In this document: in pieces, positions 24,550 through 32,131 of the stretch | Layout: each line of letters begins with the position of its first letter | Numbering within the stretch: the first letter of the stretch is position 1 | Virus record (IMG/VR): IMGVR_UViG_3300042465_001906 | Location: 1 to 38,103 of that record | Reading direction: 5' to 3' (one strand) | Length of the DNA: 38,103 nt | DNA from: a virus | The notes under the pieces: generated by a model | The model's database searches: none | Told to the model about the DNA's origin: nothing | The model's input: only the letters and a program-made list of their open reading frames with translations | Translations under genes and position numbers: made by a program

Positions 24550-24626
24550 TGGTGCATCTAGCGGGAGTCGAACCCACAACCCCCGAATTAGAATTTCGAT
24601 GCTCTGTCCAGTTGAGCTATAGATGC
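24550..24626 (-). tRNA. tRNA-Arg (UCU) with encoded CCA
   Basis: Minus strand. Acceptor GCATCTA/TAGATGC, D arm GCTC/GAGC, anticodon arm TCGAA-ATTCTAA-TTCGG with anticodon TCT, variable GGGTT, T arm GTGGG-TTCGACT-CCCGC. Discriminator A and CCA are encoded (24553-24550). All stems pair with one G-U per arm at most. It would read AGA codons. Confidence 0.95.
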
Positions 24627-24706: not shown

Positions 24707-24766
24707 GTCTCTCTATCCAGAACCCTGAGATGTGGGTGAAAAACGACTACTGGACTGTCCAAGTGA

Positions 24767-24836
24767 GCCTCCTATCAGAATCGAACTGATGACTTCGTTT
24801 TATCTTTACGGTGCTTTACCACTAAGCTCAGGAGGC
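24767..24836 (-). tRNA. tRNA with degenerate anticodon arm, tentative Ile (GAU)
   Basis: Minus strand. Acceptor GCCTCCT/AGGAGGC, D arm GCTT-AGTGGTA-AAGC and T arm ATCAG-TTCGATT-CTGAT are perfect. The anticodon arm CCGTA-AAGATAA-AACGA has only three internal pairs, C-A and A-A mismatches at its ends, and A instead of U at position 33. If aligned normally the anticodon is GAT. No CCA is encoded. It may be a pseudo-tRNA or a functional variant. Confidence 0.65.
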
Positions 24837-31174: not shown

Positions 31175-31247
31175 CATTGATTTGCAATGAGTTGCATGAC
31201 AATTCTGGGGGGATGGAAGAAAGTTTCACTTTTTTGCACGAGATCGC

Positions 31248-31275
31248 TTGACAAAGTTCTGGAATGCCCTACTGT
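31248..31275 (+). promoter_or_regulatory. Rightward sigma70-like promoter
   Basis: TTGACA (31248-31253), a 16-base spacer and TACTGT (31270-31275) on the plus strand. The -35 is perfect and the -10 keeps T, A and the last T. It would start RNA near 31282, giving the candidate small RNA that ends in a terminator at 31371, and by read-through the only rightward gene. Confidence 0.5.
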
Positions 31276-31281
31276 TTCCCC

Positions 31282-31371
31282 AGACGCCATTCACACCAGT
31301 CTAAACCTTTGGGGTTAAACCCTCTAAAAGGCCGGTACGGAGTGAATGCCGTGGCTGGCCTTTTTCTTTTT
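31282..31371 (+). ncRNA. Candidate small RNA with intrinsic terminator
   Basis: About 90 bases between the rightward promoter and a strong terminator: GGCCGGTACGG (31330-31340) pairs with CCGTGGCTGGCC (31349-31360), followed by TTTTTCTTTTT. Upstream, AACC-TTTG-GGTT can form a small hairpin. The terminator loop holds GTGAATG (31342-31348), perfectly complementary to CATTCAC at 31288-31294 near the 5' end, so a pseudoknot or attenuation switch is possible. No open frame of useful length. Confidence 0.5.
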
Positions 31372-31375
31372 CAGT

Positions 31376-31717
31376 GGGAATTGGTCAGACATATGGATGG
31401 TGAGGAGGAACGCTAAAACGACCGCACTTCACCGAGTTGGAAAATGGTTCGTCACTTTATCGCGGGTGGCGGTAATAGTCAGTAATGACCGTTTGGTTTG
31501 ATGCTTCTTGTAGGACATTCCAAAGCTACAAACGGTTCCTCGAAAGAGGTGTATGCTCAGACTCAGTAGCTCGTCCGAAAAGAAAAGACAAGTTTATGAT
31601 TCAGATACAGTTCGTCTACATGGCGAATTGTGTCTAGATCTAGAAAGCTGAACCGAAAGAAAAGTATTGCTAAGATAATGCTTGAATACTCATCCTTGAG
31701 TAATTAAAACACCTCAT
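31376..31717 (+). other. Structured non-coding leader before the rightward gene
   Basis: No gene. A chain of helices: ACCGC+CACC (31421-31433) with GGTGGCGGT (31465-31473); GTCA-GTAA-TGAC (31478-31489); CGTTTG/CAAACG around TTGTAG/CTACAA (31490-31535); CCTC-GAAA-GAGG (31538-31549). Two loops are GNRA. Then come two purine-rich CCGAAA(A)GAAAAG stretches, the 12-bp palindrome TCTAGATCTAGA (31633-31644) and hairpin ACTCA-TCCT-TGAGT (31688-31701). It looks like a structured RNA or a control leader. Confidence 0.45.
31633..31644. promoter_or_regulatory. 12-bp palindrome, possible operator
   Basis: TCTAGATCTAGA is perfectly self-complementary and lies 74 bases ahead of the rightward start codon. 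A dimeric regulator could bind here; the candidates encoded in the genome are the product of 31718-32131 and the winged-helix protein at 32201-32446. Confidence 0.35.
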
Positions 31718-32131
31718 ATGATTGAAGTAACTAAAGAGCTTATTCTGTCTCTAAAGTCAGAGAGAGGTGGATATACTAAGGCCAGCCTTAAGAAAATCGG
31801 GGTTTCTTGGCCTTTGAAATCAGGATGGAAGCAAAGAGCAATCGGAACTCTTGTGCCTGACTTCAGAGCAAATGATAAATTGGCTTTTGTTCCAGCCATC
31901 AATGCTTCCGAGTCAGGACTGACCTTTAGGTTTGAAATGACTTCATTTGAAATTCCTAAAAAGCCTACTGCCAAAAGTGCCAAAACTGCCAAAAGTCAAA
32001 AACCAGACCATTTTCCTGCCGTCAGGAATAAGGTTGAAGCTGATCTAGACCATTTTGTTGGCGTCAGCAATATGGTCGAGGACGATCCAGAGAACCCTCC
32101 TTGGAAAACGTTACAAACTGAAACGGTTTGA
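31718..32131 (+). CDS. Orphan protein, the only rightward gene
   Basis: A 137-residue protein. Residues 1-48 form a compact basic domain (MIEVTKELILSLKSERGGYT, KKIGVSWPLKSGWKQRAIG). Residues 80-95 are an Ala-Lys linker (KPTAKSAKTAKSQK). Then a duplicated unit follows: DHFPAVRNKVEAD and DHFVGVSNMVEDD, encoded by a 39-base repeat (32006-32044 and 32048-32086). It stands alone between the early and late leftward blocks, behind a long structured leader, which is the usual place for a regulator. I do not recognise the family. No SD precedes the ATG. Confidence 0.75.
   Translation: MIEVTKELILSLKSERGGYTKASLKKIGVSWPLKSGWKQRAIGTLVPDFRANDKLAFVPAINASESGLTFRFEMTSFEIPKKPTAKSAKTAKSQKPDHFPAVRNKVEADLDHFVGVSNMVEDDPENPPWKTLQTETV

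What the first reader, a model, noticed from the sequence alone, without database searches (positions are those of the whole stretch)
31421..31549. Chain of hairpins with GNRA loops in the leader of the orphan rightward gene
Four consecutive helices fit into about 130 bases with no coding frame: a 9-bp stem with a 4-base bulge, GTCA-GTAA-TGAC, a nested CGTTTG/TTGTAG stem, and CCTC-GAAA-GAGG. Two loops are GNRA tetraloops. Such density suggests a structured RNA (regulatory leader, ribozyme-like or decoy RNA) rather than plain spacer. I cannot match it to a known class.
Basis: partly seen in the sequence, partly recalled or inferred. Interest (0 to 1): 0.75.

Follow-up and report, generated by a model that had tools for sequence, protein, structure and literature searches.

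The report
New structured RNA family in phages
The stretch is part of a roughly 280-base folded RNA gene, not previously catalogued, that about 50 viral sequences carry as an optional extra behind its own promoter and a short control-like RNA, so it points to an unexplored RNA-based function in phages.

Summary
By energy, 31421-31549 is no more stable than shuffled sequence (z 0.04). Comparison with relatives nevertheless shows a real RNA: window 31389-31665 (+) belongs to a non-coding family on about 50 viral contigs. Covariation is strong: score 0.590 against at most 0.135 for slid controls, 21 of 27 pairs changed on both sides. A 23-base P1 loop, GAGGAACGCUMAAACGACCGMAC, is nearly invariant. 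Rfam and isolated phages give no match. It is not the orphan gene's leader: that gene is missing in L007 and most relatives. The RNA sits at different genome sites, opposite to the flanking genes, and most portal-gene relatives lack it. Directly upstream is a second conserved module: promoter, hairpin, and a terminator-like hairpin whose loop complements the first hairpin's loop (mean run 9.6 nt against 6.5 permuted). In relatives the slot behind it can hold a different RNA plus an HNH-like gene, or that gene alone. Most likely: an accessory, standalone phage RNA gene reached by read-through of an attenuator-like leader. Its target is unknown.

The parts
31248..31275 (+). sigma-70-type promoter of the leader: TTGACA (31248-31253), 16-nt spacer, TACTGT (31270-31275)
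   Evidence: position read from sequence; TTGACA aligned in clade A relatives; TTGAC and a -10-like hexamer found upstream in all 22 clade B members checked
31282..31302 (+). leader hairpin 1, AGAC...GTCT, whose loop holds CATTCAC (31288-31294)
   Evidence: fold z -2.20 for 31280-31371; loop complementary to the terminator loop in all 39 members scored
31311..31322 (+). leader hairpin 2 (GGGG-UUAAA-CCC; GGAG-UUCG-CUCC in relatives)
31326..31371 (+). terminator-like hairpin with U-run; its loop holds GTGAATG (31342-31348), complementary to the loop of hairpin 1
31388..31393 (+). conserved GACATA just before the large RNA (possible -10 element or 5' part of the RNA; role unknown)
31389..31665 (+). 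large structured non-coding RNA (type 1); ends approximate
   Evidence: model R1 hit 31397-31552 at 1.3e-31 (the window was among the sequences the model was built from)
31399..31433 (+). P1 hairpin of the large RNA; encloses the near-invariant 23-nt loop GAGGAACGCUAAAACGACCGCAC (31405-31427)
   Evidence: 4 of 5 P1 pairs with both-side changes
31451..31470 (+). P2 hairpin GTCAC/GTGGC
31489..31535 (+). P3 CCGTTTG/CAAACGG with P4 GCTT/AAGC (31503-31506/31523-31526) inside
   Evidence: 6 of 7 P3 pairs with both-side changes
31538..31549 (+). P5 hairpin CCTC-GAAA-GAGG
31604..31634 (+). P6 hairpin GATACAGTTCG/CGAATTGTGTC
31718..32131 (+). orphan ORF, 137 aa; variable neighbour, not part of the RNA family
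   Evidence: no Pfam or PHROG match; absent in L007

Best explanation
The feature is a standalone, accessory non-coding RNA gene of a tailed phage. Transcription runs rightward, against the flanking phage genes, from a sigma-70-type promoter at 31248. It first makes a leader of about 90 nt that ends in a terminator-like hairpin, and then, by read-through or from an unseen second promoter, an RNA of about 280 nt with at least six helices and a near-invariant 23-nt loop. Shown by comparison: the RNA fold, the strand, its independence from the downstream gene, the conserved promoter and terminator-like hairpin, and the complementarity of the two leader loops. Inferred: that loop-loop pairing tunes termination so that the leader works as an attenuator for whatever lies in the slot behind it, and that the large RNA acts in trans as a folded RNA or RNA-protein particle, its invariant loop being the binding site for a host or phage partner. 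The first, comparative part is about 95% likely; the attenuator-plus-trans-acting mechanism about 40%.
For: Covariation across clades A, B and C. G-U cells far outnumber A-C cells on the + strand (128 against 34; 56 against 4). Conserved without the orphan gene. Present at a second genome site, between the scaffold-like and portal genes, on the opposite strand. Absent from most portal relatives. Promoter in all clade B members checked. Leader structure. Loop-loop complementarity 9.6 nt against 6.5 +/- 0.24 permuted, none of 200 permutations above 7.26; across the loci scanned, every unit found lay upstream of a large RNA, with 0.05 expected by chance per 38 kb. In L197 and L192 the slot holds a different RNA-like sequence of about 300 nt plus an HNH-like gene, and in L009 an HNH-like gene alone.
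Against: No expression data; read-through and a trans function are inferred. Window z-scores are weak (-1.5 to -1.6). Most family members were collected with the 23-nt motif itself, so its invariance is partly by selection; it is invariant in the six clade A sequences found through Erf, but missing from L161 found by the covariance model. My P2 alignment between subtypes is imperfect. Structures used for the G-U count were drawn on the + strand, which favours that result.
Confidence: 0.6

Rival explanations
1. Cis-acting leader (riboswitch-like) that controls the downstream rightward gene.
For: A promoter, a terminator-like hairpin and a structured stretch precede the orphan ORF; some other members have rightward ORFs behind the RNA (a possible DNA methyltransferase in L008, a sigma-region-4-like protein in L164 and its look-alikes).
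Against: The downstream gene differs or is absent (L005, L006, L007 and most of clade B); the terminator-like hairpin lies before the large RNA, not between it and the gene.
Confidence: 0.15
2. A mobile or homing element, or a relic of one: a ribozyme-like or HEARO-like RNA that has lost its HNH gene.
For: The same slot holds RNA plus HNH-like gene in L192/L197 and an HNH-like gene in L009; the RNA occurs at two genome sites and is accessory.
Against: No type 1 member inspected has an HNH gene behind it; no Rfam match to HEARO or group I/II introns; the type 2 sequence gave no hit with the type 1 model.
Confidence: 0.14
3. Counter-defence decoy RNA that mimics an antitoxin or guide RNA.
For: In the divergent member L161 one leader-like unit upstream is an abiF RNA motif (RF03085, 45.3 bits, cutoff 37) with no AbiF-sized ORF in the 9 kb examined; AbiF is neutralised by such an RNA in C. 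difficile (PMC12373285).
Against: No abiF-like match in the window or in the clade A and B loci searched; the large RNA resembles no known antitoxin RNA.
Confidence: 0.09
4. Chance hairpins or a DNA-level site (origin, packaging site) with no RNA function.
For: z-score near zero over the stated interval.
Against: Compensatory changes in 21 of 27 pairs across clades, an excess of wobble pairs on one strand, and a conserved promoter.
Confidence: 0.02

Closest known systems
GOLLD and ROOL RNAs (large ornate RNAs of phages and prophages)
   Same: Phage-encoded, non-coding, complex folds, unknown function (PMC12286853).
   Different: No Rfam match to either; about 280 nt against more than 800 nt for many GOLLD RNAs; not next to the window's tRNAs (about 6.6 kb away); has a leader module with complementary loops.
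HEARO (HNH endonuclease-associated RNA and ORF)
   Same: The same slot in L192/L197 carries an RNA-like sequence of about 300 nt followed by an HNH-like gene.
   Different: The window's type 1 RNA has no HNH gene behind it and no Rfam match to HEARO.
abiF RNA / type III toxin-antitoxin antitoxins
   Same: Promoter, short RNA, terminator, then cargo; an abiF motif is in the upstream array of L161; RCd22 ends at a terminator with read-through into abiF (PMC12373285).
   Different: No abiF motif in the window or in the clade A and B loci searched; no AbiF-like toxin gene seen.
phi29 pRNA; phage P4 CI and P1 C4 RNAs (from general knowledge, a lead only)
   Same: Short phage RNAs whose loops pair, with loop sequences that can differ between phages while staying complementary.
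   Different: No Rfam match; pairing here is 7-12 nt between two loops of one leader; the terminase is not phi29-like; no packaging or immunity role shown.

Membership tests
Any Rfam 15 family | match at or above the family's gathering score over 31230-31717 | tested here: not met
   (best 25.7 bits, cutoff 100); relatives
GOLLD / ROOL | Rfam covariance model match | tested here: not met
GOLLD / ROOL | homo-oligomeric RNA cage | not testable with these tools
   needs cryo-EM or native gels
HEARO | Rfam match and HNH ORF directly behind the RNA | tested here: not met
   an HNH-like gene follows only the unrelated type 2 sequence
group I / group II intron | Rfam match | tested here: not met
abiF RNA | RF03085 motif | tested here: not met
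   not in window or L006/L087/L093; met only in the array upstream of L161
cis-regulatory leader / riboswitch | constant association with a downstream gene or gene class | tested here: not met
structured non-coding RNA (general kind) | covarying helices and no coding frame | tested here: met
transcription attenuator leader | promoter, terminator, and a linked or competing structure upstream of cargo | tested here: inconclusive
   promoter, terminator-like hairpin and loop-loop complementarity met; termination and read-through not measured

The most novel reading that the evidence does not exclude
A two-part RNA cassette: a leader whose two loops are phage-specific and complementary sets, by pairing within or between RNA molecules, whether transcription passes into an RNA-only cargo. 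It would be an RNA system with a specificity code (exclusion or immunity among related phages, or dosage control), whose effector is a new 280-nt RNA.
Probability: 0.13. Interest if true: 0.9.

Novelty: new variant of a known kind. Interest (0 to 1): 0.68.

Why it matters
Few large structured RNAs of phages are known and most have no assigned function. This family has clear helices, a near-invariant loop, clear genome context and alternative occupants of the same slot, so both its fold and its role can be tested directly. The complementary loops of the leader, different from phage to phage yet always paired, suggest an RNA-based switch or specificity code that I did not find described for such a locus.

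Tried and rejected
Energy z-scores as evidence: uninformative here. Rfam at gathering and permissive thresholds: nothing over the RNA. Isolated phages and bacterial genome contigs: no match; the bacterial scans used only the A-variant of the core, so the C-variant was not searched there. Nearest isolate with a related portal protein, phage C75C1: no core and no model hit. Relaxed core pattern: 18 further hits (L097-L114), none with the surrounding element; most look like coding sequence. Mutual-information ranking over clade B: confounded by two subtypes of P2/P3. A pairing of the 23-nt loop with CUUCCUC near the 3' end, proposed by RNAalifold, was dropped because UUCCUC varies in L141/L150 and is absent in clade A. 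Similarity to tmRNA or RNase P signatures was considered and dropped: neither gave an Rfam match. Literature searches found no description of this RNA.

Full report
WHAT IS THERE. The window is a 38,103-base viral contig in IMG/VR, most of whose recognisable genes lie on the minus strand: Erf recombinase, exonuclease, DnaB helicase, metallophosphoesterase, endolysin, terminase. The finding lies in the divergent gap between Erf (-) and a short rightward ORF.

THE STATED INTERVAL. Folding energy gives no support: z 0.04 for 31421-31549 and 0.15 for 31400-31570. The hairpins GTCA-GTAA-TGAC and CCTC-GAAA-GAGG are present. The wider gap folds better than shuffles (31230-31717: z -3.55 on the plus strand), but for the element proper the window reaches only -1.5 to -1.6. 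Energy alone would have left the question open.

RELATIVES. Searching viral contigs with Erf gave L004-L008, in which window 31355-31660 or so is conserved at about 74-82% DNA identity although it is non-coding. A pattern made from the best conserved block found further members, a relaxed version added 30 genuine ones, and a pattern from another part of the RNA added six more contigs, among them members without the exact block. In all about 50 contigs carry it. Three clades are visible: A (window, L004-L008), B (most), C (L096, L132/L160). A covariance model of P1-P5 found the window at 1.3e-31 (the window was part of the training set) and a more divergent member, L161, at 2.9e-11. L161 was not in the training set and keeps P2-P5 but has a short P1 loop without the 23-nt block; P6- and 3'-hairpin-like stretches can be read by eye in its sequence.

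RNA STRUCTURE. On 34 clade B sequences a 52-pair structure is formed in 94.8% of cells, covariation score 0.202 against 0.03-0.05 for slid partners. On 23 sequences from all three clades the P1-P5 structure scores 0.590 against at most 0.135, with 21 of 27 pairs changed on both sides and still paired. Clade A alone gives 10 such pairs. Examples: P3 is CCGUUUG/CAAACGG in the window, CCAGUCG/CGAUUGG in L008, CUAGAGA/UCUCUAG or CCAAUGA/UCAUUGG in clade B. Wobble pairs (128 and 56 cells) exceed A-C cells (34 and 4) on the plus strand, so the rightward transcript is the likely functional RNA; this count is somewhat favoured by having drawn the structures on that strand.

NOT THE ORPHAN'S LEADER. 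In L007 the RNA is intact and the orphan gene is missing; the next minus-strand gene follows. In clade B the RNA lies between a scaffold-like gene and the portal gene, again on the opposite strand. Downstream rightward ORFs are occasional and unrelated to each other: a possible methyltransferase in L008 (judged from its motif), a sigma-70-region-4 protein (tested for L164; similar ORFs in L092, L130 and L140 by sequence resemblance only). Only 6 of 78 portal-gene loci scanned have the RNA beside the portal gene, and none of 33 records of RNA-lacking relatives, many of them fragments, has it elsewhere; 9 of 48 records in the earlier scan had it. It is therefore accessory.

THE UPSTREAM MODULE. 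All 22 clade B members checked have TTGAC and a -10-like hexamer upstream of the 23-nt block; the window has TTGACA-16-TACTGT. Then come a hairpin, a second hairpin and a terminator-like hairpin with a U-run. The loop of the first hairpin is complementary to the loop of the terminator-like hairpin in every one of 39 members scored: CATTCAC/GTGAATG in the window, GAATGCAA/TTGCATTC in L004, CGAAGTAGGA/TCCTACTTCG in L084, AGGAAGTCAGAA/TTCTGACTTCCT in L140. The mean run is 9.6 nt; after exchanging loops among members it is 6.5 (sd 0.24, none of 200 permutations above 7.26). Some of those 39 sequences are near-duplicates, so the number of independent events is smaller. A scan of 25 loci found such units only directly upstream of a large RNA, with 0.05 expected by chance per 38 kb; that scan is strict (it misses the window's own unit and that of L009).

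OTHER OCCUPANTS OF THE SLOT. Compared with L142, L197 has the same upstream module (90% identity) and the same downstream flank (82%), but an 876-base stretch in place of the RNA: a different RNA-like sequence of 301 nt followed by an ORF with an HNH-type motif. L192 has the same pair (88% identity over 292 nt). Pfam did not match the L197 ORF, so 'HNH' rests on the motif WHIDHITPLASAKS...NLQPLWAEDN. In L009 the module is followed by an HNH-like ORF alone. In L161 three promoter-terminator units stand in tandem, one of them an abiF RNA motif above the Rfam cutoff.

HOW IT MOST LIKELY WORKS. A rightward promoter makes a short leader that usually stops at the terminator-like hairpin; read-through, perhaps set by the loop-loop pairing, makes the cargo, which in this phage is a folded RNA. 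The leader-cargo logic is like that of AbiF in C. difficile, where an RNA ends at a terminator with some read-through into the gene (PMC12373285). The cargo RNA probably acts in trans, with the 23-nt loop as its main contact. The fold, strand, accessory nature and leader complementarity are shown by comparison; termination, read-through, trans action and partner are inferred.

NOVELTY. No Rfam family, isolated phage or bacterial genome contig matched within the searches made, and no paper found describes it. The general kind, large structured RNAs of phages, is known from GOLLD and ROOL (PMC12286853). I therefore rate it a new variant of a known kind.

Noticed in passing
L161:1273-1309 (same as L165:8554-8590): abiF RNA motif (RF03085, 45.3 bits) forming a terminator-like hairpin in an array of promoter-terminator units in a phage, with no AbiF-sized ORF in the 9 kb examined; possible antitoxin decoy.
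   Followed up: partly
L197:8365-8665 and L192:8990-9278 (minus strand): A second, unrelated RNA-like sequence of about 300 nt followed by an HNH-like gene in the same slot; no plausible Rfam match at E up to 10.
   Followed up: partly
L164 (ORF behind the RNA), similar ORFs in L092, L130, L140: A 163-aa protein with a sigma-70 region 4 domain (Pfam PF04545, 3.5e-09 for the L164 copy) encoded rightward behind the RNA; a possible phage transcription factor.
   Followed up: partly
L162, L163, L166, upstream of the leader promoter: Short tandem repeats GTCGGAGAAAAT (three to four copies) between the scaffold-like gene and the promoter, resembling iterons.
   Followed up: no
L002/L003 against window 31195-32045: A contig with 93% identical Erf lacks exactly this stretch, cutting into the 5' part of the Erf ORF and the 5' part of the orphan ORF: a deletion or an assembly join.
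   Followed up: no
window 24553-24626 and 24766-24836 (minus strand): Two tRNA genes (Rfam RF00005), about 6.6 kb from the RNA.
   Followed up: no
window 31718-32131: Orphan 137-aa ORF without Pfam or PHROG match; only its C-terminal part (residues 110-131) is found in L002.
   Followed up: partly
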